Source of the DNA: Candidatus Desulfatibia profunda
Lineage (GTDB): Bacteria; Desulfobacterota; Desulfobacteria; Desulfobacterales; UBA11574
Reading direction: 5' to 3'
NCBI GenBank assembly: GCA_014382665.1
Contig: JACNJH010000099.1
Location: forward strand, 1-46,097
Length of the DNA: 46,097 nucleotides
Positions 4,425-18,667 of this stretch are shown piece by piece. The notes below the pieces were generated by a model. The model saw only the letters and a list, made by a program, of their open reading frames with translations. It was not told where the DNA came from and searched no databases. The position numbers and the translations under genes are program-made. Within the stretch, counting starts at the first letter, position 1; every line of letters begins with the position of its first letter.

Positions 4425-5237
4425 TTATGATAGGTCCTGCTTGAGCGTTTTGCTTAACGACACCAGTTCAGGCGAAATTTTTGGTTTCGTCAGAATAACA
4501 ATCAGATCAAACGTTTCCTGCTTTTGCTCGCCGTTTTGCGAATATTTAAGGATCAGGGGTTCCGCACCCTGACCTTTTTCAACGGCATCCGGTAATCCCG
4601 GAATAATCTTAAGGCCCGGGATCTTCTCTGCTTCGGGAAAGAACTTCTCCTGAAAGGCTTCACAGATGGGAGAAACGAGAGCCACCTCGAGATCTTCTGC
4701 TCTGTCAAGGGCCAGGACCGATTCGTTCACCCCCAGAACCAAACTGGAAAAGAGATGGGCTTCATCGTCCTTCGGATGACCCTGAATAACGGCGATGCGC
4801 CTGGGAATATCACCATCCAACGGTGAAAGCACCATTCCGTTGGTCGGGCCGTCAGGGGAAAGCATACGTTCAAACTGCAGGTCCGTAATGACATCCGGAA
4901 AACTCCCATAACCCAACTGAGAATTGAAAGGGTGGAATGCGTTGTCCTGCCCCTTGGTAATAATAACCTCGTCAAATTCCAATTCCAGTTCTTCATCCGG
5001 AATGTCAAAATCGATGGCCTCCGGTTTGCATTCCGCCCAGCACAGGGCACAGCCCAGGCACCGACGGCAGCTGAGGCAACGTTTGGCCTCTTTTACCGCC
5101 ACTATCTCGGGGAAACCGGTCTCGACTTCCGTAAAATTTCCTCTTCTTTCATCGATCGACATCTCCGGCATTTCCGCCCGGGGAGTCGGCACATCACCGA
5201 ATGGTATAATATAGCGCTTTTGTTTTTCGTAGATCAT
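4425..5237 (-). CDS. HdrA-like C-terminal module with Fe-S cysteines, partner of the GltD-type gene
   Basis: The 270-residue protein begins directly after the stop of the GltD-type gene (TAAATG), so the two are translationally coupled. Near residues 53-68 is a cysteine-rich ferredoxin-like cluster (CLSCRRCLGCALCWAEC). The following stretch, VITDLQFERMLSPDGPTNG, aligns with the same part of both HdrA proteins in this operon (for example [17 protein letters not shown]). However, the downstream HdrA cysteines are gone: CVGSRD has become GHPKDD, and PYCSAVCC has become HLFSSLVL. I read it as the C-terminal half of an HdrA-derived scaffold that has lost one cluster site. It probably forms one functional unit with the preceding gene. 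It is the last gene of the operon. Confidence 0.72.
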   Translation of the reverse strand: MIYEKQKRYIIPFGDVPTPRAEMPEMSIDERRGNFTEVETGFPEIVAVKEAKRCLSCRRCLGCALCWAECKPEAIDFDIPDEELELEFDEVIITKGQDNAFHPFNSQLGYGSFPDVITDLQFERMLSPDGPTNGMVLSPLDGDIPRRIAVIQGHPKDDEAHLFSSLVLGVNESVLALDRAEDLEVALVSPICEAFQEKFFPEAEKIPGLKIIPGLPDAVEKGQGAEPLILKYSQNGEQKQETFDLIVILTKPKISPELVSLSKTLKQDLS

Positions 5238-6905
5238 TTACTTGCTCCTCAGATACGCATGAATCCCCGCAGCCGCCCGTTTACCGCCGGCAACCGCCCG
5301 AATGGCGATATCCGGGCCGGTCACCACGTCACCGCCTGCGAACACGCCCGGCACATTGGTCATACCGGTTTCCTCATCGATCTCGAATGTTTGCCAGCGT
5401 GAAAGTTTGAGGTTATGCTCTTGGGGAAGAAAGCTCAAATCGGTGCCCTGGCTGATGGCGGGCACAATGGTTTGGGCATCGATGACATATTCAGAACCCT
5501 CCATGGGAACCGGCCGCCTGCGTCCCGAGGCATCCGGTGCACCCAGCTCCATCTTGATGCACTTCATTCCCGTAACTTTGCCGTTTTCACCCAGGATTTC
5601 CACCGGAGCCGCCAGGTACTGAAGAATGACGCCCTCATGCTCGGCAGCATCAATTTCCCAGGGGTTGGCCGGCATCTCTTTTTTGGTCCGGCGATAGAGA
5701 ATATAGACCTCATCAAAGCCCATGCGCCAGCCCACACGAGCCGAGTCAATGGCCGCATTGCCCCCGCCGATCACGATAAGCTTCCCTTTGGCTTCCGGAA
5801 GACCGCCAAGGGCCTGATTCCTCAAAAAGGTCACACAGTCTATGATTCCCTCGTATTCATCTTCCCCGGGAATGTGCAGCTTGAGGCCGATGTGGCAACC
5901 GATGCCGATAAACACGGCATCATAATCGTTTTTAAGGTCTTCAAAAGCAATATCTTTGCCGATGCGCGTATTGTATTGAATCTCCACGCCCATATTGCAG
6001 ATGAGGTCCACTTCACGCTGCAAAAGTTTTTTGGGCAGCCGGTATTCCGGAATCCCCACCCACAGGTAGCCTCCGGGGACCGGAAGCGCTTCAAAAATTT
6101 TGATATGCTGATACCCCAGCTTTGCCAGGTCATGCGCACAGGTCAAACCGGCCGGGCCCGCGCCGATAATCGCAATCTTCTCCGGAAATTTTTTCTCGGG
6201 AGTCGCATAGACCGGTTCAATCCCCTGGTGCAGCTCTACATCTGCAACGTAGCGTTTTAGAAAACAGATACTGATCGGTTCATCCAGGTACTGCCGGTTG
6301 CAGGCCGTCTCACAGGGATGCGGGCAGATACGACCGATACTGCCGGGTAGCGGGAGGCGCTCTCTGATCGTCGCCAGGGAGTCAAGGTGCCGGCCGTCGG
6401 CGATTAAACCAACGTAAGAACGAATATCCAGATTAACGGGGCAGGTCTGCTGGCAGATCGGCATGTCTTCCTTATAGACATTGTATTCGCCGGTATTCGG
6501 ATTGCAGTAGTCCACGGCGGTACGAAAACCGAGGCCCTGATTAAAGTCGTCAAACATGTTCACCGGGCAGACCTTGATGCAGGCTTTGCAGTCGTTGCAT
6601 TTGCTGTTATCCACCCTCAGGCTGCGCTTCAAAATTCGTGTCCGCACCCTCCCATTTTCCCGGGTGACCTTCTTGAGATCACTGTAAGTCAAAATCCTTA
6701 TATTAGGACAGCTGCGGACCTTGTCCAGATCGCGGTTCGCAAAGGCCTCAGCCGGTTTAATCAGCCGGTCCCTGGGAATTCTTTCCCCGCCCAGCGTGGG
6801 AAACTTTTCAAGAAGGGTTACCTGCACCCCTTGATCGGCCTTCTCCAGCGCTGCCCGGATGCCTTCAGGACCTCCGCCGACAACTAAAACACTTTTATTT
6901 TCCAC
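5238..6905 (-). CDS. HdrA N-terminal domain fused to GltD-type NAD(P)H:flavin oxidoreductase
   Basis: The 555-residue product is a mosaic. Residues 1-135 follow the HdrA plan: VLVVGGGPEGIRAALEKADQG, then a ferredoxin cluster CNDCKACIKVCP and the HdrA-like stretch FNQGLGFRTAVDY. The HdrA NDCxxC/U segment is replaced, so that ligand is absent. From about residue 150 it becomes the small subunit of glutamate synthase/NfnB type: CQQTCPVNLDIRSYV and CPHPCETACNR (Fe-S), GAGPAGL (FAD), GGGNAAIDSARVG (NAD(P)) and the closing GGDVVTGPDIAIRAV. No GltB is nearby, so the role is probably NAD(P)H entry or exit for the Hdr complex. The gene lies 50 nt after mvhD2 and abuts the next gene. NADH versus NADPH preference cannot be told from sequence alone. 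Confidence 0.85.
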   Translation of the reverse strand: MENKSVLVVGGGPEGIRAALEKADQGVQVTLLEKFPTLGGERIPRDRLIKPAEAFANRDLDKVRSCPNIRILTYSDLKKVTRENGRVRTRILKRSLRVDNSKCNDCKACIKVCPVNMFDDFNQGLGFRTAVDYCNPNTGEYNVYKEDMPICQQTCPVNLDIRSYVGLIADGRHLDSLATIRERLPLPGSIGRICPHPCETACNRQYLDEPISICFLKRYVADVELHQGIEPVYATPEKKFPEKIAIIGAGPAGLTCAHDLAKLGYQHIKIFEALPVPGGYLWVGIPEYRLPKKLLQREVDLICNMGVEIQYNTRIGKDIAFEDLKNDYDAVFIGIGCHIGLKLHIPGEDEYEGIIDCVTFLRNQALGGLPEAKGKLIVIGGGNAAIDSARVGWRMGFDEVYILYRRTKKEMPANPWEIDAAEHEGVILQYLAAPVEILGENGKVTGMKCIKMELGAPDASGRRRPVPMEGSEYVIDAQTIVPAISQGTDLSFLPQEHNLKLSRWQTFEIDEETGMTNVPGVFAGGDVVTGPDIAIRAVAGGKRAAAGIHAYLRSK

Positions 6906-6955: not shown

Positions 6956-7741
6956 CTACATATCCGAGCTTGGAGCTATCTGGTACACTGGTGTTCGCCC
7001 AGACACCGTTTCCAGCCGGATCATCTCTCTCCGGTTCAAGGCGGTTATGTATCGAAAGACTCTATCTGAAGGAATGTCCAGAGCATCGGACAGCCCCTTC
7101 ACGGATTGAGACCCCTCGTTTAACTTGCCGAGTATTTCCTGGACCTCGAACTCTTCCACAATGATCATGTCAATGACCCGATCAAATTCATGCTCAGTGA
7201 AGCTTTCACCATATTTATTTCCAGACTCCATAAATTCGGTTTTTTTGCCGATGACCCACCGCATCTTTTCACCGGCCAGCACTGCCTGGGCAGCTTCCAG
7301 TTTTTTAAAGATCTCCGGGGCTTTCAGCAAGTCGCCTTCGCTTCCAAGCGGCCCTAAGCTTCGGATCTTTTCATCAAATTCTGTAACCAGTTTAACAAAG
7401 ACGGCAGCCTCGCCGGAAGAGCATTGCCGAAAAGCAAGACGTTCTTCATTCACTCCAATGTGTTTGAATAATCGGCGGGCCATTTCTATTTTGATCTTGG
7501 CCTGGACATTCCCAGTGATATAATGGCAGTCGCCAAAGTAGCACCCCACCACCATAAGGCCGTCAAGCCCCTTTTTAAAAGCCTTTGCCACCATGGCCGG
7601 ATCCACCCGGCCGGTGCACATAATTCGAATCGTCTTGATCTCCGGGGTATATTGTAGTCTGGAAACTCCAGCTAAATCAGCAGCCGAGTACCCTCACCAG
7701 GTACAGCAAAACGCAAGAATTTTTGGAGTAAATTGGGCCAA
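6956..7741 (-). CDS. mvhD: MvhD-like [2Fe-2S] subunit 2, selenoprotein (Sec16), with C-terminal extension
   Basis: MvhD-type proteins carry a [2Fe-2S] cluster that passes electrons to or from HdrA. The frame conserved from MCTGRVDP onward continues upstream through an in-frame TGA (7694-7696) into a perfect MvhD N-terminus: KILAFCCTW[15 protein letters not shown], matching [17 protein letters not shown] of the other copy. The TGA replaces the second Cys of the CxxC motif, and a SECIS-like hairpin follows. The proposed start is TTG at 7741 with AAGGGGG upstream, giving 261 residues. The GCYFGDCHY motif keeps its Cys. Residues about 140-261 form an extension with a C-terminal helix-turn-helix-like part (LSDALDIPSDRVFRYI), beyond the roughly 140 residues of ordinary MvhD. 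Standard-code ORF calling would start at the internal ATG at 7621 and lose 40 residues. Confidence 0.85.
7655..7674 (-). promoter_or_regulatory. Putative SECIS hairpin of mvhD2
   Basis: Beginning 19 nt after the TGA at 7694-7696 on the minus strand is a hairpin of eight pairs with one bulged A. Arms CTGGA/TCCAG are extended by TAG/CTA, and the loop is GTT. Position and size fit a bacterial SelB-binding element. It is the weakest of the four in this operon because of the bulge and the three-base loop. Confidence 0.5.
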
Positions 7742-7850: not shown

Positions 7851-9548
7851 TCATTCAATCTTCAATTCTAAGAACGCATCGATCTGGGCTTCAATTTGCT
7901 CGCTCGTATATGAGTTAATGCTCAACGCGTGTTGATAGCAGGTGGCAGCGCACACGCCGCATCCTTTGCAAGTCACATCGATCACATGAACCTTTTTCCC
8001 CTTTTCAGTTCGGTGAATCTCCAGAGCACCATAAGGGCAAAGCACAACGCAGAGCCCGCAGCCCCGGCAGGCGTCTTCATCCGCCAAAACCGAAATGATC
8101 GGCTCCACAACGATGGAACCCCGGGACAAGGGGATCGAGGCCCGGGAGGCCGAACCCAAACCCTGGGCAATCACTTCGCGAATATTGGCCGGAAAACGCG
8201 CGCTGCCGCAAAGATAGACGCCGTCGGTGGCAAAATCGAGCGGTTTTAATTTCACATGTCCTTCCAAGAAAAACCCGTTCTCGTCAATCGGGACCCTGAG
8301 AAGCTGGGAGGTCCTCTCGGCATCTTCCTGGGCGACCACCGGCGTGGAAAGGACGACAAGGTCTGCAGGCAGGTTGATTTCGCGGCCAAGTAAGGAATGG
8401 TAAACCTGCACCTGATCGGCTTCTACCTGGGGCGGCTTATCCGGATCGTAGTGCATGTACCGGACGCCCTTGGCCTTGGAATCCCGAAACATCTCCTCAT
8501 TCTCGACGCCGTACATCTGCATATCCCGATAGAGGATAGATACCCTGGCATCGGCAATTTGATCCTTGATCAGCATGGCGTTTTTAACAGCCGTTTGGCA
8601 GCAGATCCTCGAACAGTAAGCTCTCTTTTGATTGCGGCTGCCTACGCACTGGATCATGACAACGTTTTTGATATCCGCAGCCAGCCCTTCTTTGAGAAGC
8701 TGCTCCATTTCAAGCTGGGTAATCACCCGCTCGCCGTCATAGCCATAGAGCCCCTTGGGGACAAAGACACGCCCGCCGGTGGCAACCAGGATAACCCCAA
8801 TGTCGATGTTCTTCTGGCCGGATTCCGTCTCGATATCGGCTTGGAATTTGCCGATAAATCCCTGTACAGCGCTGACCCTTGTCCCGGTGAAGACGGTAAT
8901 CTTGTCATGCTGCGTGACTTCCTGGATTTTTGCCTCAATCAGTTCGCTTGCATCCATCATGGTGGGACCAAGCTTATTCAGCCTATTTAGCATACCGCCA
9001 AGAGTTTTTTCCTTTTCAACCAGGACCACTTCGTATCCGCGTTTGGCCAGCGCCGTCGAGGCCGTCATCCCGGCCAAGCCCCCGCCGATGACAAGGGCAC
9101 GGGCCTGAACAAGGGACATAATCGACTTCTGGGGCTTTAACAAAGCGGCCTTGGCAAGCCCCATACGGATCAGGTCCTTGGCTTTGGCGGTTGCATCCTC
9201 CTTCTGTTGCATGTGCACCCAGGAGCATTGATCGCGGATATTGACCATCTCGAAAAGGTAGGGGTTCAGCCCGGCTTCTTCACAGGAACTTCGAAAAAGG
9301 GGTTCATGGGTCCTCGGCGTACAGGAAGCGACCACAACGCGATTGAGGTGTTGCTCCTTGATTCCCTTTTTGATCTCGTTAATGCCGCCTTCCGAACACG
9401 AATACAGATTCCTTTGCACGAAAGCCACACGGGGAAGCGTTTCGGCATAATCGGCCAAAGCTTCCATATCCAGGTAGCCGGCAATATTGGACCCGCAATG
9501 GCAAAGAAACACTCCGATCCTGATGTCATTGTCTTTATTCTCAGGCAA
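7851..9548 (-). CDS. hdrA: HdrA2 C-terminal module (FAD / 4Fe-4S electron-transfer subunit)
   Basis: The 565 residues align end to end with roughly residues 460-1009 of the fused HdrA1 in this operon, so this is the second half of a split HdrA. It opens with IGVFLCHCGSNIAGYLD, has an FAD-binding GGGLAGMTAS near residue 155, the HdrA cysteine set QCVGSRNQKRAYCSRICC near 300-320, and ends in two ferredoxin motifs, CRGCGLCVVLCP and CKGCGVCAATC. HdrA is the flavin-bifurcating core of heterodisulfide reductase complexes. The start codon lies inside the 3' end of the preceding HdrA2 N-terminal gene (8-bp overlap), so the two halves are translationally coupled. The split looks native, because both halves are intact and contain no stop codons beyond the Sec TGA in the partner. 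Confidence 0.9.
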   Translation of the reverse strand: MPENKDNDIRIGVFLCHCGSNIAGYLDMEALADYAETLPRVAFVQRNLYSCSEGGINEIKKGIKEQHLNRVVVASCTPRTHEPLFRSSCEEAGLNPYLFEMVNIRDQCSWVHMQQKEDATAKAKDLIRMGLAKAALLKPQKSIMSLVQARALVIGGGLAGMTASTALAKRGYEVVLVEKEKTLGGMLNRLNKLGPTMMDASELIEAKIQEVTQHDKITVFTGTRVSAVQGFIGKFQADIETESGQKNIDIGVILVATGGRVFVPKGLYGYDGERVITQLEMEQLLKEGLAADIKNVVMIQCVGSRNQKRAYCSRICCQTAVKNAMLIKDQIADARVSILYRDMQMYGVENEEMFRDSKAKGVRYMHYDPDKPPQVEADQVQVYHSLLGREINLPADLVVLSTPVVAQEDAERTSQLLRVPIDENGFFLEGHVKLKPLDFATDGVYLCGSARFPANIREVIAQGLGSASRASIPLSRGSIVVEPIISVLADEDACRGCGLCVVLCPYGALEIHRTEKGKKVHVIDVTCKGCGVCAATCYQHALSINSYTSEQIEAQIDAFLELKIE

Positions 9549-11082
9549 CGGCTTTCTCCTTTTCTGATTTCAATTGAATCGCAACTTCCGCGGCGCGTTC
9601 AGCAGCACTGGAGGCCTGGGCCACGGATTCGGGAACATCCATGGGCGATTCTGCGCAGCCGCAGACAAAAATCCCCGGCACACTTGTGTCAACCGGAGAC
9701 AGGGCGCTGGTCTTTATGAAATGATATTCATCCAGTTCGACTCCGAAAATCTTGGCCAGCGCACCAATCCCCTTTGACGGCGCACAGGCGGTGGCCAGGA
9801 TCACCATGTCGAACTCCTGGCTTTTTACCTGCCGCTGCTGGGTATCTTCATAAATCACAACCGGGTTATGATTGGCCCCTTCCATGATCTCACTGACCCG
9901 CCCGCGAACATAGGTAATATTGGATTTTTTACCGCCGCGCAGTTTGTACTCTTCAAACCCTTTGCTGACAGCCCGGATGTCCATGCCAAAGATCGTGGAT
10001 GTCGTCTCCGGGCCATGCTCGTGGGCGATAACGGCCTCTTTAATAGAGTGCATGCAGCAGTATCCTGAACAAAACGGATAAAACCGAAAATCCCGGGACC
10101 CCACACACTGGACAAAGGCCAGCCTTTTGGCCACGGTAAAGCCCTCGGCCTTTTTTTTCAGGGCTTCCAGAGACTCTATGATTGCCAAATACGCGGCATA
10201 CTTTTCGGCCCACTTCTTGCGATCCTCGTCGTCCTGATAGTGGTTCTGCCGGTATTTTTCATAAACGTCGGCAGAAGCTTCACCATATTTCTCTTCGAAT
10301 TTTTCCAGCACCCGCTGGGATTTCTTAACATCCTTTTCAAGCGCTTGGATTTCAGCTTCAACGGCACGATCCGAAGGACGGACCAGGTGACCATGCGTTG
10401 GCCCGCTGGCACTCAAGAGTCTTTCGAACTCGATGGCGGTGACCACATTGGCAATTTCCCGGTAGCGGTATTCAGGAATCTGTGAAGGATCAAAAACGTC
10501 GTATCCAACGGCGATGATAATGGCCCCGACATTGAGTGTGATGATCCGGTCTTCTTGATCAAAATTTATGGCGTCGGCCTGACAGGCCTTTTTGCAGATA
10601 CCGCATTTTTTCCCATTTAACTCTCGGCAGTAGTCCGGGTCAATCGTATGGGTCGAGGGGATGCCCTGGGCAAAGTAGCTGTAAATCGCACTGCGACTTC
10701 CCAGCCCTTCGTTGAAAGCATCCGGTACCACCGTCGGGCATTTTTCAGCACAGGCACCGCAGCCGGTACACTTGTCTTCCTCGACATAGCGTCTCTTTCT
10801 GCGAACGGTGACAGTAAAGTCTCCGGCCGCGCCCTCCACCTTCTCGACTTCGCTGTAAGCCAGCAGCTCTATATTGGGATGTCGACCGACATCCAGCATC
10901 TTGGGCGAAAGGATTCAGATGGCACAGTCGTTGGTGGGAAACGTCTTGTCCAGCTGGGCCATTTTGCCGCCGATGCTGGGCAGCTTCTCCACCAGATGGA
11001 CCTTAATTCCCATATCGGCAAGATCCAGGGAGGCCTGGATTCCGGCAATCCCCCCACCGACAACCAGCATGTCTTTACTCAT
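9541..11082 (-). CDS. hdrA: HdrA2 N-terminal module, selenoprotein (Sec56)
   Basis: The reading frame runs from ATG 11082 through an in-frame TGA (10915-10917) to 9541, giving 513 residues. N-terminal to the TGA is the FAD fold ([17 protein letters not shown]) and TFPTNDCAI. The TGA replaces the Cys that normally follows (NDCxxC), and [15 protein letters not shown] continues in frame, so Sec substitutes a cluster ligand. Fe-S motifs [12 protein letters not shown] and [13 protein letters not shown] follow, then [19 protein letters not shown]. Between them is a charged insert of about 80 residues, probably coiled coil ([20 protein letters not shown] onward), absent from HdrA1. A hairpin 20 nt past the TGA supports Sec insertion. 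It overlaps the C-terminal module gene. With the standard code it would be annotated only from the internal ATG at 10899. Confidence 0.9.
10877..10894 (-). promoter_or_regulatory. Putative SECIS hairpin of hdrA2
   Basis: Twenty nucleotides after the TGA at 10915-10917 is a perfect 7-bp stem (GGATGTC/GACATCC) with the loop GGTC. The loop resembles the G-U-bearing apical loop that SelB recognises in E. coli fdhF, and the distance is within the bacterial range. Both the stem and the codons around it are part of the coding frame. Confidence 0.72.
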
Positions 11083-11144: not shown

Positions 11145-12272
11145 CTATGTTTTTTTTATTCGCTCGGACACTAAATCATATAAATCCGTAATCTCTATCT
11201 CCAGACCAAAAGCCTGCTTGGCACACCGGAAATGAATCTGGCATTTGGGGCAGGCGGTGACAACGCTCCCGGCGCCGGTATTGCCGGCTTCGCTGAGGCG
11301 CTGCAGCTGGATTTCTTTGGAGCAGCTGGAACAGTTCATCCAGCCGGAAGTTCCGCAGCAAACCCCGTTTTCTCTGGAGCGGGGCATCTCTTTGAGTTCA
11401 ATGCCGGGAATCGCTGCCAAAAGCCTGCGGGGGGCATCGTAGATGCCTGCCAGGCGTCCAAGCCGGCAGGGATCGTGATAGGTCACGATTTGGCCATTGG
11501 ATTGGGCAAGCTGAATAACCCCTTCGCTGAGCTTGTCCGCCAGAAAATCAAGGATATGGATCGGCTCAAAATCGAGTTTGCCGAAAAACTTTGGATAGTA
11601 TTCCTTAAATGTATGATACCCTTCCGGGCAGCTGAAAATCACCTGCTTGGCGCCTGAAGAACGGATCAGGTCCAGGTTCAGGCGTGCAAGTTGTTTGAAC
11701 TTTTCTTCGTTCCCATTCCAAAGCGCATCATGGCCGCAACACCTTTCATTATTGCTGACCACCGGTTCGACCCCGCAAACGTTCAGAATTTTCAGCACAT
11801 TCCGAGCCCCTTGAATTGATCCGGCATCGATATCCCGAAAAATGACGTCAAAATAGGGCCGGCAGCCCACAAAATAAAACACATCCCCCGTCTCTTGTAT
11901 TTTTCCGTCTTCGATCCAGGATGTACGATTTTGCTGAATACCCTTTGTCTGGATGGCCATGATGGTTTGAAACATTCCGTTATGGGCCGGTACTCCATCG
12001 TATCCCAGCAAGTGGGCTTTATCGCGCATCAGGCGGATGAATTCAGGAAAATTGATGTCGGCCGGACAGCGGACACTGCACTGGGCGCAGGTCAGGCAGT
12101 TCCAGATGGTATCGTCGGAAAACTCCTCCAGTTCGTAAAGAGAGCGCTCTATAATCTGCCTAGGTGAAAATTCAGGGAAAACCCTGGAAACCGGACAGCT
12201 TCCGGTACATACCCCGCAGTCGAGACAGAAATAAGTTTTTGTGGTGTTTACCAGTTCATCGATCGCATTCAT
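11145..12272 (-). CDS. HdrC-HdrB fusion (HdrD-like) Fe-S oxidoreductase
   Basis: This 375-residue protein joins an HdrC-like ferredoxin domain to an HdrB-like CCG domain, the same order as methanogen HdrD. Cubane motifs are C16-C19-C22-C26 and C59-C62-C65-C69. The first CCG motif has C137, C178-C179 and C215 but reads CPEGYH where the last Cys is expected. The second is complete (C269, C305-C306, C341, C344), so one noncubane cluster is well supported. Proteins of this type reduce disulfide or other two-electron substrates at the CCG site. The substrate here is unknown; CoM-CoB heterodisulfide is unlikely in a bacterium. The gene lies 39 nt after mvhD1 and 62 nt before hdrA2, so it probably docks to HdrA2. 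Confidence 0.88.
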
Positions 12273-12311: not shown

Positions 12312-12731
12312 TCAGGCCGCCTGCTTCAAGGTTGACGGTCCCAAAGATTTGATCTGCTCGGTAAATTCTCTGGCAACCTCAGCAAAACGCACGCCTTCTG
12401 CCGAAGAGATCCATTCCAGGCGCAGTCTGGCAGGCTCAATGCCGAGGATTTTGACCAACTCCTGGGTTATTTGGAATATCTTTTCGGCCTTAACATTACC
12501 ATCCAGGTAATGGCAGTCGCCCATATGTCACCCGGACACCAGAACCCCGTCGACACCCATTTGAAACGCCTTGAGGATGAAATTGGGATTCACCCGGCCG
12601 GAACACATCAAGCGGATGATGCGCATATTGGGCGGATATTGAAGACGGCTGACACCTGCCAGGTCGGCGGCCGAATAGGCGCACCAGTTGCAGGCAAATG
12701 TAATGATCTTTGGATTGAATTCTTCAGCCAT
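12312..12731 (-). CDS. mvhD: MvhD-like [2Fe-2S] subunit 1, selenoprotein (Sec68)
   Basis: A single frame from ATG 12731 to 12312 encodes 139 residues if the TGA at 12528-12530 is read as Sec. The upstream half carries [17 protein letters not shown] and [11 protein letters not shown]; the downstream half starts [11 protein letters not shown]. The TGA falls exactly at the first Cys of the conserved GCHxGDCHY motif, giving GUHMGDCHY. The methanogen protein VhuD is a known MvhD homologue with selenocysteine. The length matches ordinary MvhD. A perfect 7-bp hairpin begins 15 nt after the TGA. The gene sits between hdrA1 and the HdrCB fusion and probably links an electron donor to HdrA1. No hydrogenase large or small subunit occurs in the window, so the partner may be the NAD(P)H module further downstream. 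Confidence 0.92.
12494..12512 (-). promoter_or_regulatory. Putative SECIS hairpin of mvhD1
   Basis: Fifteen nucleotides after the TGA at 12528-12530 lies a perfect 7-bp stem, CATTACC/GGTAATG, with the loop TGGAT. The loop contains a GG, and the spacing matches a bacterial SECIS. It is the cleanest of the four hairpins together with that of hdrA2. Confidence 0.75.
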
Positions 12732-12904: not shown

Positions 12905-15900
12905 TCAGCCGCCAAATGCCGCTTCCACCATCGCCAGCACTTTCTGGTCATCGAAGTGGAAAATAGAGGCGGCGCCGGTCGGACAGGCCACGGCACATGA
13001 GCCGCAGCCCGTGCAAATTGCCTGATTTACCTCGCAAACAACACGGTCTTCATGAAAATCGATGGCCTGATAGGGACAGACCTTCAGGCACTGCTGACAA
13101 CCCCTGCAAAACTGGGCATTAATATTGGAGACGATGGCGTTGCCGAGAACCTTCTCATGGGATAAAAATGTAACCGCTCGTGAAGCCGCCCCGAGTCCTT
13201 GCGCAACGGCTTCGTCAACAGGCTTGGGCGAATGGGCCAGACCACAGACAAACACCCCTTTGGTGGCAAAATCTATGGGCTGGAGTTTGACATGGGCTTC
13301 GACAAAAAAGCCGTCGGCATTCACCGGCACCTTGAACAACCGGGCTACGGGATTTTCCCGCGGTGCTACCATCGCAGTGGCCAGAACCAGCAGGTCCGGT
13401 CTGATCTCGATTTCACGTTGCAGCACATAACTGGTGCACCGGACATTCAGACCGTTTTGATCTTTGGAAACGGTTAAGCCTTGGTCAACGTCATACCGAA
13501 TAAAGACGACGCCCTTGGCCCGGGCCTCACGGTACAGTTCCTCACGCAATCCGTAGGTGCGTATGTCCCTGTATATAATGAAGACATCCATTTCGGGCTT
13601 TAACTCTTTTAATTTGAGAGCATTCTTGACCGAGTGCGTACAGCACACTTTGGAACAGTAAGGTCTTTCTTTGATCCGTGAGCCGACGCACTGGATAAAG
13701 ACCGCCGATTTGATTTCATTTAAGGGCAGATTATCATCGATAAATTTCCGATCCAGCTCCAGCCCCGTTAGAACCCCTGGATCTTCACCGTAAAGATACG
13801 CGTCCGGTTTGAACTCTTCAGCACCTGTAGCAAGGAGCGCCACACCGTGTTCGATCACCCGCTCCTTACCGGCAGTTTCAACGGTGGTTTGAAAATTACC
13901 GACAAACCCATCCACTTTCTTTACTTCGGTGCCGGTCATGATTTTGATGTTCTGGTCGGATTTTACTTCACTGATGAGCCTGGCCAGGTTCTTTTGAACA
14001 TCTTCGCCCCGCCAGGTTTCATGGAGGTTCAGCGCCTGCCCGCCCAGGACATCGCTCTTTTCAACGAGATAGGTGAGATAGCCCTGCTGGGCCAGGTTCC
14101 TGGCCGCGGTAATGCCGGAAAGACCGCCGCCGACGATTAGGGCAGACCGGTTCATTGTTATTTCAGGATCGGAAAGCGGCTCAAGCAGGTTCACTTTGGA
14201 TACGGCCATGCGTACAAGGTCTTTGGCCTTTTCGGTGGCTTCTGGCTTTTGACTGCTGTGCACCCAGGAGCATTGGTTGCGAATGTTGGCCATTTCAAAA
14301 AGATATTTATTGATACCCGCATTGCGTACCGTTTCTTGAAAGAGCGGCTCATGGGTGCGCGGCGAGCAGGCCGCCACCACAAGCCGGTTCAATTTCTGCG
14401 CTTTAATTATCTGGGTTATCTGTTCATGGGTGTCCTGGGAGCAGCTGAACAGATTGTCAGCGGCATAAACCACATTCGGCAGGGTTTTGGCATATTCGAC
14501 CACATCCGGAACCTCTAAAAAACCGCCGATATTGGTCCCGCAATGACAGACAAATACACCGATCCGCGGGAGCTCTCCCCGCACATCAATCTCTTCGGGG
14601 GTTTCTTTGGTATGTATCAAGGACCCGCGGGATTCGGCCAGCGTGCTTTCCGCCGCCGCCGCCGAAGCACTCGACTCGATAACCGACTGGGGAATGTCCT
14701 TGGGGCTTTCAAAGGTGCCGCACACAAAAACGCCGGGTTTGGACGTGCGTACAGGTTCAAAGCTGCCGGTCAAGGCATGCTGATATTGATCAAGCTCAAC
14801 ACCCAGTTTTTGGGCCAAATCCAGGGCATCCTCCGACACCCCAAAACCGACCGACAGAACCACGATATCGAATGTTTCTTCAATCCGCCGGCCGGCTTCG
14901 TTGGTATAGCGGATGAGCAGATTGCCCGTATCGCCGTCCGCGAGAACCGTGCTGATTTTTGATTTAACAAAACGTACGCCCGCTTCTTGCGCCCGGTTGT
15001 AGTAGCGCTCAAAATCTTTTCCATGGGTGCGGATATCAATATAAAATATGGCGGTATCCAGCTGCCCCTTCTGGTGCTCTTTGGCGATGATGGCCTCTTT
15101 GATGGCATAGGTACAGCAAACCGCCGAACAGTAAGGCTGTGATCCCGGGTGCATGTCTCTGGAACCCACACACTGAATCCAGGCAATCTTCCGGGGTTCA
15201 ACGTGATCCGACGGTCTAATCAGGTGACCGCTGAAAGGTCCGGTTGCAGCCAGTATGCGCTCAAATTCCAGGCTGGTTACAATATTAGGAGATTTTTTAT
15301 AGCCATAGGTATCGTAAGCGGCGGGATCGTACACCTTGCAGCCGGGGGCGATCAGCACCGCACCGACAGTGATGGTGCGTTCTTTTGGCTGGTCCTCAAA
15401 ATTGATGGCATCGGCCGGACAGAACTTCTGACAGGCCTTGCACTTGCCCTTTTTAATAAAATAGATACAATTTTTTTCATCGATGGCGTACTTTAAGGGG
15501 ACCGCCTGGGCGTATTTGACATAGGCCGCCTTGCGTTTGCCCAGACCGGCGTCGTATTCATTGGTTACCTTTTTCGGACACTTCTCGGCACACACGCCGC
15601 AGGCGATACACTTTTCCATGTCGACATAGCGGGGATGCTGCAGGATCTGGATTTCAAAATTGCCTTCCTCGCCGGAGATGTTCACCACCTCTGACAAGGT
15701 TAAAAGCTCTATGTTAAGATGCCGGCCGACCTCGACCAGTTTGGGCGAGATAATTCACATGGAGCAGTCATTGGTGGGAAAGGTCTTGTCCAGCTGGGCC
15801 ATGACGCCGCCTATGGAAGGGGACCTTTCCACAAGGTAGACATAAAAGCCGGAGTCGGCAAGATCCAGGGCCGCCTGCATTCCGGCTATCCCGCCACCGA

Positions 15901-15934
15901 CCACCATTACCGAACCTGTTTTTGTTTGAGTCAT
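12905..15934 (-). CDS. hdrA: Full-length fused HdrA1, selenoprotein (Sec60), flavin-bifurcating core
   Basis: Read through the TGA at 15755-15757, the frame gives 1009 residues from ATG 15934, 12 nt after hdrB. It opens with [20 protein letters not shown] (FAD) and TFPTNDCSM, then Sec60 in place of the usual Cys, then [12 protein letters not shown]. Ferredoxin cysteines follow at about 109-119 and in [13 protein letters not shown], then [22 protein letters not shown] second half starts near residue 460 ([17 protein letters not shown]) with its own [14 protein letters not shown] flavin site, another QCVGSR/CCTH cysteine set, and two C-terminal ferredoxin motifs ([24 protein letters not shown]). 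Thus it contains two HdrA-type modules in one chain, whereas HdrA2 nearby is split. HdrA bifurcates electron pairs at FAD. Standard ORF calling starts at 15697 and loses the first 79 residues. Confidence 0.93.
15722..15739 (-). promoter_or_regulatory. Putative SECIS hairpin of hdrA1
   Basis: Fifteen nucleotides after the TGA at 15755-15757 is a 7-bp stem including two G-T (G-U in RNA) pairs, CTGGTCG/CGGCCGG, with loop AGGT. The spacer TCGCCCAA is shared with the hdrA2 copy, but the stems differ in sequence, as expected when structure rather than sequence is kept. Confidence 0.65.
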
Positions 15935-15946
15935 TTACTCTTTTCC

Positions 15947-16837
15947 TTAAGTTTCCACCGCTTCCGGTACCCTAACGAAATCTTCTATACCCTGAAGTGA
16001 TAACCGATTCATTTCCAGCCCCAGCAGATCCCGGTCAATCCCCAAACTCAGTCCCAGAAGCTGGGGATAGAGTACGGAGGGCAGCTGAAGGTCCGTACTC
16101 CGGCCGGAGCGCATCATCTGTTGAACCGTATCGAACTGCATCTGACAGAATGGGCAGGCCGTGCACAGATAGTCTGCACCGGCTTTATCCCCGTCCGCCA
16201 GTTTCTTTTCGGTCAAGCGCATGGACAGATCGTCATTTATGCCCCACACCGGGGCGCCGCAACATTCCAGCTTCATCGGCCAGTCGATGCTTCTGGCACC
16301 GGTAACTTCCACGAGTTGATCAAAAATGGAAGGCACCACCGGATCATCGAATTGAACGATCTTGCTCGGCCTGAGCACGTGACAACCGTAATGCGTGGCG
16401 ATCTTTAAGTCTGAAAAGGGTTTTTCTATCTTCTCTTTGAGCGTTTTAATACCGATGTCATGAAAGAGAACAGAGAGAAAATGTTTCACCTCGATATCTC
16501 CATCATATTTCAGGCCTTCCTTTTCAAGAATCCTGTTGATTTCTGCACGCAAAGCGGCATTCTCCTTGATAAGATGGTCCGCCTTCTTGAGGCTGCCGAA
16601 GCAGCATTTACACAGGCTGATCACGCTTAAATTCTCTCTGGCCGCCAGAGCAAGGTTTCTGGCCGAAGCCAAAACAAATGCCGTATGATCCATATTTCTT
16701 ACAGGGTAACCGCAACAATTGAACTCCCTGATATCTGTCACCCCTACATCAAATTTACGTAAAACCGCTCTTGCCGATGATTCGTACTGCTTGAGACGGG
16801 CCGGGATGTTACATCCTATATACAGCGCAAACTTCAT
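15947..16837 (-). CDS. hdrB: HdrB-like heterodisulfide reductase subunit (two CCG domains)
   Basis: The 296-residue protein has two full cysteine-rich CCG repeats: C9, C41-C42, C76/C79 in the first (CKCC adds C78), and C152, C192-C193, C228/C231 in the second (C225 adds another). In HdrB such repeats bind noncubane [4Fe-4S] clusters where disulfide substrates are reduced. The protein is cytoplasmic with no signal or membrane segment. It lies between the membrane HdrC-type fusion (60 nt upstream) and HdrA1 (12 nt downstream), giving the classical B, A and C set. The bacterial substrate is unknown; candidates are a cellular disulfide, or simply electron relay to the quinone-reactive membrane subunit. 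Confidence 0.92.
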   Translation of the reverse strand: MKFALYIGCNIPARLKQYESSARAVLRKFDVGVTDIREFNCCGYPVRNMDHTAFVLASARNLALAARENLSVISLCKCCFGSLKKADHLIKENAALRAEINRILEKEGLKYDGDIEVKHFLSVLFHDIGIKTLKEKIEKPFSDLKIATHYGCHVLRPSKIVQFDDPVVPSIFDQLVEVTGARSIDWPMKLECCGAPVWGINDDLSMRLTEKKLADGDKAGADYLCTACPFCQMQFDTVQQMMRSGRSTDLQLPSVLYPQLLGLSLGIDRDLLGLEMNRLSLQGIEDFVRVPEAVET

Positions 16838-16897: not shown

Positions 16898-18667
16898 TTA
16901 TTTCGGCTTTTCCTGATTCGACCTTTCTTTTACCTGTTCGACCGCCGCATTTTTAAGTTCATACAGTATGTCCGTGACACTTACGCCTTGGGGACAACGC
17001 TCCTGGCACTGGTAACAGGTCAGACAGTACCACAGCATATTTGAACCCAGGGCCAAATCCTTTAAGCCCAGTCCGCAGGAGTGCATGATCTGATGCGGCA
17101 AAAGCCCCAGTGCTGCCCGGGGATTGTCGTAGCTGGCGACGACCGGGCATACCGTGCTGCAGGTTTCACAACCAAAGCAAGCCAGGAAGGTGTCTGCCTG
17201 ATCCGACCGGCTCAAACCGGCTTTGAACCCCGGATCAATACCGGACAGTGATAAGATCTTGTCCTGTATTTTCATGAGCTCACATGTATCGGCAATCGCT
17301 TCCCGGGCCTGATCCAGCGGTTTTTGGTAAGTGTCCTTATCGGCATCTTCTTTCATCAGGCCGCGATAAAAGGACAGGGGAGACAACGCAAAAAATTCCG
17401 GATAACCCTTTTGCAGGAGCGACTCTCTAACATTAAACCACAAGTCCTGCAAGTTAATGCCGGCCGGGCAGGCTACCGTACAGCGACTACAGTTAGTACA
17501 AAGATAGACGCCTTCCTGAATGTGCCTGAGTTCGTCCGCACTCAGCGGTTTGCCTGCCGCCAGATATTTTATCGACAAAATCTTTTCAGAAGGAAGAATG
17601 TTGGTATTGGGAAAATGCTCAAAAAATACCGCCGCCGAGCAGTTCAGGGTGCAGGTGCAGCAGTGGGTGCAGGCGTCCAGCTCCATAATCTGCCGGGTGG
17701 CAATGTTGGCGGGGTCTGATTTCCCTTTCTGCATAACTGCATTGGCAAGCAGGCTCAATGGGCTGGCAAAGATATGAAACATCTTACTCAAAGGCAGATA
17801 GGCCAGGCCGATAAAACACGCCAGGAAATGAATATACCAAAGTATGGTGGCACTTTGCGCCCGATCCAGCGCCAAAGCGATCGGTTTTGAAATTTTAGCA
17901 ACCGCATAACCTGCAAAGGCCCACTGAGGTCGTGAATGGCAGTCCATACAACTCTCCTCGTGGATCTCCTGGCCCTGAGACAAAACGTCCTCATCAAAGG
18001 GGGCCTTTACATTCGGGGAGACCACTCCAAAATACTCGGCCCAGTAGCTTTCCAGGGCCTCAATGGCCGCTTCATCATCCAGACCGGCATAATCTTCCAT
18101 CATGATCTGAAATTCGGTGTAAGAAGTGATTTTCGCGCCTTCCAGCAGAACTCCTGAAATCATGATCACTGCCAGAATAATGATCGCATAGTAATCCATG
18201 GCATTGGTTTCCAGACGGGGCACCTTTAAAATAAAGCGCCTGTAAACGGCAATGGCGACTCCCAGGATGACCATAGCGCCGAACAGATCCCTTAAAAACA
18301 TAAACGGGTTGATTGTTGAATAATAATCCGTAAAAAGTGCGGAACTAACGAAATTATCGAGGGCATGCATCAGAAGAAGCAGTATAAAACCGATATATAT
18401 ACAGATGTGCATAAGCCATCTGAGAAAATCCTGCCGCAATATCTTAATCTGCAAAATGACATCGAGTACAAAAACCTTTATCAGCGTTGCTATTTTTGCG
18501 CTGAACACGCTCGCAGCAATCCCTTTAATGGCTGCGGAAATCCGTACCGAGGTGGGAATTTTTTCGGCTTCTATGCCAATGCTGTAGCGAAACCAGGTTG
18601 ATGTTTTATAGACCAGACCCAATCCGAAAACTGCCAAGGCAACATACAACGAAACAGTGAAAAACAT
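16898..18667 (-). CDS. Membrane cytochrome b (NarI/HdrE-like) with c-heme motif fused to two HdrC domains
   Basis: The 589-residue product begins with five predicted membrane helices (about 3-20, 84-101, 126-143, 158-176, 276-295). His residues at 87, 101, 280 and 298 could ligate two b hemes. The loop between helices 4 and 5 (about 180-272) contains CMDCH at 240-244, a c-type heme site that implies this loop faces the periplasm. The C-terminal half carries four ferredoxin-type cysteine groups: CTHCCTCTLNC (333-343), CTNCSRCTVACP (390-401), CFGCETCSTVCP (497-508) and CLTCYQCQERCP (548-559), equal to two HdrC domains in tandem. It would connect cytoplasmic HdrB/HdrA to menaquinone and possibly to a periplasmic cytochrome. 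It is the first gene of the operon. The fusion resembles QmoC/HdrE-type subunits but carries an additional HdrC unit and a c heme. Confidence 0.88.
   Translation of the reverse strand: MFFTVSLYVALAVFGLGLVYKTSTWFRYSIGIEAEKIPTSVRISAAIKGIAASVFSAKIATLIKVFVLDVILQIKILRQDFLRWLMHICIYIGFILLLLMHALDNFVSSALFTDYYSTINPFMFLRDLFGAMVILGVAIAVYRRFILKVPRLETNAMDYYAIIILAVIMISGVLLEGAKITSYTEFQIMMEDYAGLDDEAAIEALESYWAEYFGVVSPNVKAPFDEDVLSQGQEIHEESCMDCHSRPQWAFAGYAVAKISKPIALALDRAQSATILWYIHFLACFIGLAYLPLSKMFHIFASPLSLLANAVMQKGKSDPANIATRQIMELDACTHCCTCTLNCSAAVFFEHFPNTNILPSEKILSIKYLAAGKPLSADELRHIQEGVYLCTNCSRCTVACPAGINLQDLWFNVRESLLQKGYPEFFALSPLSFYRGLMKEDADKDTYQKPLDQAREAIADTCELMKIQDKILSLSGIDPGFKAGLSRSDQADTFLACFGCETCSTVCPVVASYDNPRAALGLLPHQIMHSCGLGLKDLALGSNMLWYCLTCYQCQERCPQGVSVTDILYELKNAAVEQVKERSNQEKPK

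What the first reader, a model, noticed from the sequence alone, without database searches (positions are those of the whole stretch)
6956..7741. An MvhD with selenocysteine in the N-terminal CxxC motif
In mvhD2 the TGA replaces the second Cys of the CNWC-type motif (CTW-Sec), while its GCYFGDCHY keeps Cys. In mvhD1 it is the reverse: CNWC is intact and Sec is in GUHMGDCHY. Each paralogue therefore has Sec on a different ligand position of the presumed [2Fe-2S] site. The known VhuD Sec is, to my knowledge, not in the CxxC motif, so the CxxU variant may be undescribed. Different placement could tune two clusters to different potentials.
Basis: partly seen in the sequence, partly recalled or inferred. 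Interest (0 to 1): 0.85.

Follow-up and report, generated by a model that had tools for sequence, protein, structure and literature searches.

The report
Selenocysteine MvhD, CxxU form, common

Summary
Window 6956-7741(-) is an MvhD (PF02662, E 2e-47) whose only in-frame UGA (7694-7696) replaces the second Cys of CxxC (CCTW-U). Its operon neighbour mvhD1 (12312-12731) keeps CNWC and has UGA at GUHMGDCHY. The genome has tRNA-Sec, SelB and 13 MvhD domains: three CxxU, five GU, none both.

TAA/TAG at that codon: 0 of 395. A 2026 review already tabulates MvhD/VhuD as "CxxU, 2 Sec".

Sec reading is well supported: codons before the UGA are under strong purifying selection (ratio 0.03), all 7 unselected orthologues keep the UGA, and synonymous codons 16-38 nt downstream are frozen in a hairpin.

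New here: Sec lies at only two of five conserved thiols (C2 or C4; 31 and 25 of 56 unselected places; both in 8 pattern loci), clade-linked. C2 alone is replaceable (Asp in 18 of 20 long-protein domains), so whether CxxU is a cluster ligand is open. "Different potentials" is untested.

The parts
6956..7741 (-). mvhD2: Sec-containing MvhD (CCTW-U), 261 aa, with a winged-helix-like C-terminal extension
   Evidence: PF02662 E 2.1e-47; TGA conserved in 7/7 unselected orthologues; model residues 3-143 match 7bkb_F at Z 19.7
7694..7696 (-). UGA codon read as Sec, second position of CxxC
   Evidence: sequence; 143/395 genomes TGA, 0/395 TAA or TAG
7659..7671 (-). candidate in-gene bacterial SECIS hairpin CUGGA-GUU-UCCAG, 25-37 nt from the U of the UGA
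   Evidence: hairpin scan (z 0.76 for this copy alone); near-invariant bases in 16 orthologues; frozen synonymous codons
12312..12731 (-). mvhD1: Sec-containing MvhD (CNWC, GUHMGDCHY), 139 aa
   Evidence: PF02662 E 1.2e-54; reading
12528..12530 (-). UGA codon read as Sec in mvhD1 (GU position)
12494..12512 (-). candidate SECIS hairpin of mvhD1, CAUUACC-UGGAU-GGUAAUG
   Evidence: z 1.73; GU class mean 2.16 against 0.01 for Cys genes at the same place
5238..6905 (-). HdrL part 1: HdrA-like N-terminal piece followed by a GltD-like NAD(P)H oxidoreductase
   Evidence: follows mvhD2 in 11 of 11 resolvable relatives of its class
4425..5237 (-). HdrL part 2: continues the HdrA profile (positions 283-488) where part 1 stops (279)
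7851..9548 (-). HdrA-like FAD/ferredoxin protein directly upstream of mvhD2
9541..11082 (-). HdrA with Sec at CAIU (UGA 10915-10917)
11145..12272 (-). HdrC/HdrB-like protein (Fer4 plus CCG cysteine-rich domains)
12905..15934 (-). long HdrA with Sec at CSMU (UGA 15755-15757)
15947..16837 (-). HdrB
   Evidence: CoB_CoM_SS_B E 5e-73, below its cut-off
16898..18667 (-). HdrC-like ferredoxin fused to a nitrate-reductase-gamma-like membrane domain

Best explanation
mvhD2 encodes a selenoprotein form of MvhD, the small iron-sulfur subunit that passes electrons to the FAD of HdrA. Its UGA is decoded as selenocysteine by SelB and tRNA-Sec, directed by a hairpin inside the coding sequence about 28 nt downstream. 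The protein belongs to a conserved subfamily (CCTWU plus a winged-helix-like tail) encoded between an HdrA-like protein and a split HdrL (HdrA with an inserted NAD(P)H-oxidoreductase domain), so it most likely carries electrons between an NAD(P)H-linked HdrL module and HdrA. Sec replaces one of two redox-sensitive thiols near the [2Fe-2S] cluster (C2 here, C4 in mvhD1). Shown by sequence: UGA, conservation, codon freezing, operon. Inferred: decoding as Sec, electron route, chemical role of Sec.
For: Family and fold. UGA, not UAA/UAG, at the Cys codon. N-terminus translated: approximate nonsynonymous/synonymous ratio 0.03 over the 11 codons before the UGA, and a conserved TTG/ATG start with upstream GGAGG-like sequences. 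SECIS: hairpin score z 1.22 +- 0.06 for CxxU against 0.42 +- 0.11 for CxxC, and 2.16 +- 0.10 for GU against 0.01 +- 0.08 for Cys; frozen codons (CxYU: GCG 62/63, GAC 63/63, CTG 63/63, GCA 61/63, GGT 60/63; CxWU: TCC 47/57 against 11/44 in CxxC). Sec machinery. Conserved twin-MvhD operon in L082 and L117, with L061 similar. Literature: Sec-MvhD (FrhD) in deltaproteobacteria since 2006 (PMC1794560), beside HdrA/HdrL in Desulfobacterium autotrophicum (PMC2702500).
Against: No protein data. The hairpin of this copy alone is not significant (z 0.76), and plain folding energy shows no excess for the CxxU class as a whole (z +0.17). The electron route and the partner are inferred from gene order only. 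Whether Sec touches the cluster is unknown.
Confidence: 0.88

Rival explanations
1. The UGA is a true stop and the functional protein starts at the internal ATG (7621, residue 41), without CxxC.
For: Standard ORF calling gives exactly this 221-aa frame.
Against: Codons before the UGA are the most constrained of the three stretches tested (ratio 0.03); start and ribosome-binding region conserved upstream; TGA but never TAA/TAG at this codon in 395 genomes; frozen hairpin codons.
Confidence: 0.03
2. Sec at CxxU and Sec at GU are both direct ligands of the [2Fe-2S] cluster, and their placement tunes two clusters to different potentials.
For: Both are among five conserved thiols; the cluster is known in solved MvhD relatives (PMC12350162).
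Against: Five thiols, four ligand places; C2 is replaced by Asp in 18 of 20 MvhD-like domains of long proteins, and by Ser or His elsewhere, while C1, C3, C4 and C5 stay. No potential has been measured.
Confidence: 0.25
3. C2 is not a cluster ligand but a nearby thiol or selenol that pairs with C4 or gates electron transfer; Sec at either place speeds or protects the same step.
For: Sec occurs only at C2 or C4 and never at C1, C3 or C5 (56 unselected places); both at once in 8 proteins; C2 alone is replaceable.
Against: Asp, Ser and His can also bind iron, so replacement does not prove a non-ligand. No coordinates were available to measure distances.
Confidence: 0.4

Closest known systems
VhuD/MvhD selenoproteins of methanogens and Asgard archaea (PF02662; PMC13188914, PMC11227280)
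   Same: Same family, beside HdrA, Sec at CxxU; some have two Sec
   Different: Bacterial in-gene SECIS; C-terminal extension; no hydrogenase genes seen in the mvhD2-HdrL group
Sec-containing FrhD of Syntrophobacter, Syntrophus, Desulfotalea and others (PMC1794560)
   Same: Bacterial Sec-MvhD paralogues beside HdrA in selenoprotein operons
   Different: The passages read do not state which Cys is replaced; the HdrL-linked CTWU subfamily is not singled out
HdrL/MvhD clusters of Desulfobacterium autotrophicum HRM2 (PMC2702500)
   Same: HdrA with a glutamate-synthase-like NAD(P)H domain next to mvhD; Sec in mvhD1, 2, 3 and 5
   Different: Here HdrL is split into two genes and two MvhDs with different Sec places share one operon
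MvhD of HdrABC-MvhAGD and relatives (PDB 5odc, 7bkb, 8rvu)
   Same: Fold (Z 18.8-19.7, 41-44% identity)
   Different: All-Cys in the alignments shown; no C-terminal extension

Membership tests
PF02662 MvhD/FlpD | Profile match over the curated cut-off along the whole domain | tested here: met
   160.6 bits against a cut-off of 22.3, profile 1-123/123
PF02662 MvhD/FlpD | MvhD fold | tested here: met
   model residues 3-143 against 7bkb_F Z 19.7, rmsd 2.2, 133 aligned
PF02662 MvhD/FlpD | Binds a [2Fe-2S] cluster | not testable with these tools
   five conserved thiol positions present (C1, U, C3, C4, C5); no spectra or coordinates
Bacterial selenoprotein | In-frame UGA at a position that is Cys in homologues | tested here: met
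Bacterial selenoprotein | SelB and tRNA-Sec in the genome | tested here: met
Bacterial selenoprotein | SECIS hairpin just downstream of the UGA | tested here: met
   class-level hairpin excess and frozen codons; this single copy alone not significant
Bacterial selenoprotein | Selenium shown in the protein | not testable with these tools
   needs mass spectrometry or 75Se labelling
VhuD (NCBIfam NF045873) | Score over the curated cut-off | tested here: not met
   126 bits against 215

The most novel reading that the evidence does not exclude
Sec in MvhD is restricted to exactly two of five conserved thiols (C2, C4), alternates between paralogues in one complex, and marks a thiol/selenol pair, not just cluster ligands, that takes part in the unexplained electron transfer from the MvhD [2Fe-2S] cluster to the bifurcating flavin.
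Probability: 0.15. Interest if true: 0.75.

Novelty: new member of a known kind. Interest (0 to 1): 0.33.

Why it matters
How electrons cross from the MvhD [2Fe-2S] cluster to the bifurcating FAD is described as unknown (PMC12350162), with more than 30 A between them in one crystal structure (PMC6019823). A natural series of MvhDs with Sec at C2, at C4, at both or at neither points to the two side chains worth mutating. Practically, gene callers that do not read UGA will cut such genes down to a fragment without the CxxC motif.

Tried and rejected
Plain folding energy of the stretch after the UGA gave no excess structure for the CxxU class; a loop-and-stem scan and codon freezing did. Rfam found no known RNA near the gene. 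Ligand assignment from papers failed: the held full texts searched do not name the MvhD cluster ligands in the passages found, and the model tool gives no coordinates. The paper on VhuD function (PMC3811579) is not held. Considered and dropped: recoding of TGA to another amino acid (SelB and tRNA-Sec present; the TGA sits exactly on a Cys codon); pseudogene; assembly error (same codon in many independent genomes). Comparing C-terminally extended hits at 37-45% identity showed that L243, L244 and L246 are CNWC with a TGA further downstream, and L245 has Cys at both places; they are paralogues, so they were not counted as CTWU orthologues.

Full report
What was checked. The frame 6956..7741 on the minus strand, read with TGA as Sec, gives [36 protein letters not shown]... 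with a single TGA at 7694-7696. It is a full-length PF02662 domain (residues 8-130) followed by an extension to residue 261. The paralogue mvhD1 has CNWC and a TGA at GUHMGDCHY, and ends at its own TGA stop, so it is 12312..12731.

Is it Sec? The genome has a tRNA-Sec (75.3 bits) and SelB. Across 395 genomes of the phylum, the same motif with TGA at the second Cys codon occurs in 143 genomes, with a Cys codon in 314, and with TAA or TAG in none. In the class-wide protein search, which did not select on TGA, all seven CTWU orthologues (own and L237-L242, 53-80% identity) have the TGA. In 16 orthologues, 10 of them from the TGA pattern scan, the 11 codons before the TGA show an approximate nonsynonymous-to-synonymous ratio of 0.03, against 0.10 after it and 0.14 in the extension (single-base codon differences over pairs of related sequences, so a rough figure). 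The start codon (TTG or ATG) and an upstream purine-rich ribosome site are conserved.

SECIS. Plain minimum free energy against synonymous-codon shuffles showed excess structure for GU genes but not for CxxU genes. A scan for a short hairpin with G in the first two loop positions, 16-37 nt after the UGA, gave z 2.16 +- 0.10 for GU genes (Cys genes at the same place 0.01) and 1.22 +- 0.06 for CxxU genes (CxxC 0.42). I tried the second test after the first, and its rules follow the bacterial SECIS description as I remember it. Independent of folding, synonymous codons are frozen at the expected distance: in CxYU genes A-D-L-A-G is GCG-GAC-CTG-GCA-GGT in 60 to 63 of 63 sequences, while the same residues in CxxC genes use their codons freely; in CxWU genes, the type of the window, A-G-V-S-R tends to GCT-GGA-GTT-TCC-AGA. 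The search pattern fixed no third codon position in that stretch except the pyrimidine of the Asp codon. In the window the candidate is CUGGA-GUU-UCCAG (7659-7671); this single copy is not significant alone (z 0.76).

How common is it? In a sample of 39 phylum genomes I fetched every listed PF02662 match with a TGA: after removing two places fetched twice, 56 places, 31 with Sec at C2 (CxxU), 25 at C4 (GU), none at C1, C3 or C5. Cys copies were fetched only in part, so no Sec-to-Cys ratio is claimed. Eight of the named loci have Sec at both places. On a tree of 222 domains built without the C2 and C4 columns, the states (CxxU, GU, both, Cys, degenerate) need 27 changes against a mean of 81 for shuffled labels, and CxxU against GU only 5: placement is a property of subfamilies. 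In the window's genome three copies are CxxU and five GU.

Known already? Yes. A 2026 review lists MvhD/VhuD, PF02662, as 'CxxU, 2 Sec' (PMC13188914), Sec-containing FrhD (the same family) was counted in deltaproteobacteria in 2006 (PMC1794560), and D. autotrophicum has four Sec MvhDs beside HdrA and HdrL (PMC2702500). I did not find a text that contrasts the two placements; supplements could not be read.

Ligands. There are five conserved thiols: C1xxC2, C3, C4, C5. A [2Fe-2S] cluster normally takes four. MvhD-like domains at the end of long proteins (the QmoB type, by my recollection of its motif) have Asp at C2 in 18 of 20 cases with the other four kept; single cases have Ser (L012) and His (L124). 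So C2, the residue that is Sec here, is the one most easily replaced. That could mean a non-ligand, or a ligand that Asp, Ser or His can stand in for. The tools gave no coordinates, and the passages found in held papers did not name the ligands.

Setting. Upstream of mvhD2 is an HdrA-like protein and downstream a two-gene HdrL: the first gene matches HdrA profile positions 139-279 and then a GltD-like domain, and the second resumes at HdrA position 283. The order HdrA, MvhD1, HdrC/B-like, HdrA, HdrA-like, MvhD2 recurs in L082 and, from MvhD1 on, in L117 (whose contig ends there), and more distantly in L061 (where mvhD1 is Cys); mvhD2 is followed by the GltD-like gene in 11 of 11 resolvable relatives of its class. 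Four UGA-Sec genes lie in this one operon. The AlphaFold model (pLDDT 86.7) shows the MvhD fold in residues 3-143 (Z 19.7 to 7bkb_F) and a winged-helix-like tail, residues about 157-260 (Z about 11-12 to ArsR-type and Z-alpha domains, a common fold that does not show DNA binding).

Verdict. A real, well-supported CxxU selenoprotein MvhD of a conserved HdrL-linked subfamily; a new member of a known kind. The most interesting outcome of the work is the rule that Sec sits only at C2 or C4. No measured property supports tuned potentials.

Noticed in passing
window 10915-10917 and 15755-15757 (-): Both HdrA genes of the operon carry their own Sec UGA at CxxU (CAIU and CSMU), making four UGA-Sec genes in one operon; CxxU in HdrA is already listed in the literature.
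   Followed up: partly
L247-L266, L011: MvhD-like domains at the end of long proteins have Asp at C2 in 18 of 20 fetched cases; C1, C3, C4 and C5 kept.
   Followed up: partly
window 4425-6905 (-): HdrL appears split into two genes at the end of the inserted GltD-like domain.
   Followed up: partly
window 6962-7273 (-), mvhD2 residues about 157-260: The extension folds like a winged helix in the model; its role in an electron-transfer subunit is unknown.
   Followed up: partly
G465:C1:4419458-4419745: Three CxxC MvhD motif matches spaced 125 bases apart, two of them identical, suggesting a local tandem duplication.
   Followed up: no
L038, L039, L067, L086, L103, L112, L119, L129: MvhDs with Sec at both C2 and C4; seven of the eight follow a gene most like the HdrA-like protein at 7851-9548.
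   Followed up: no
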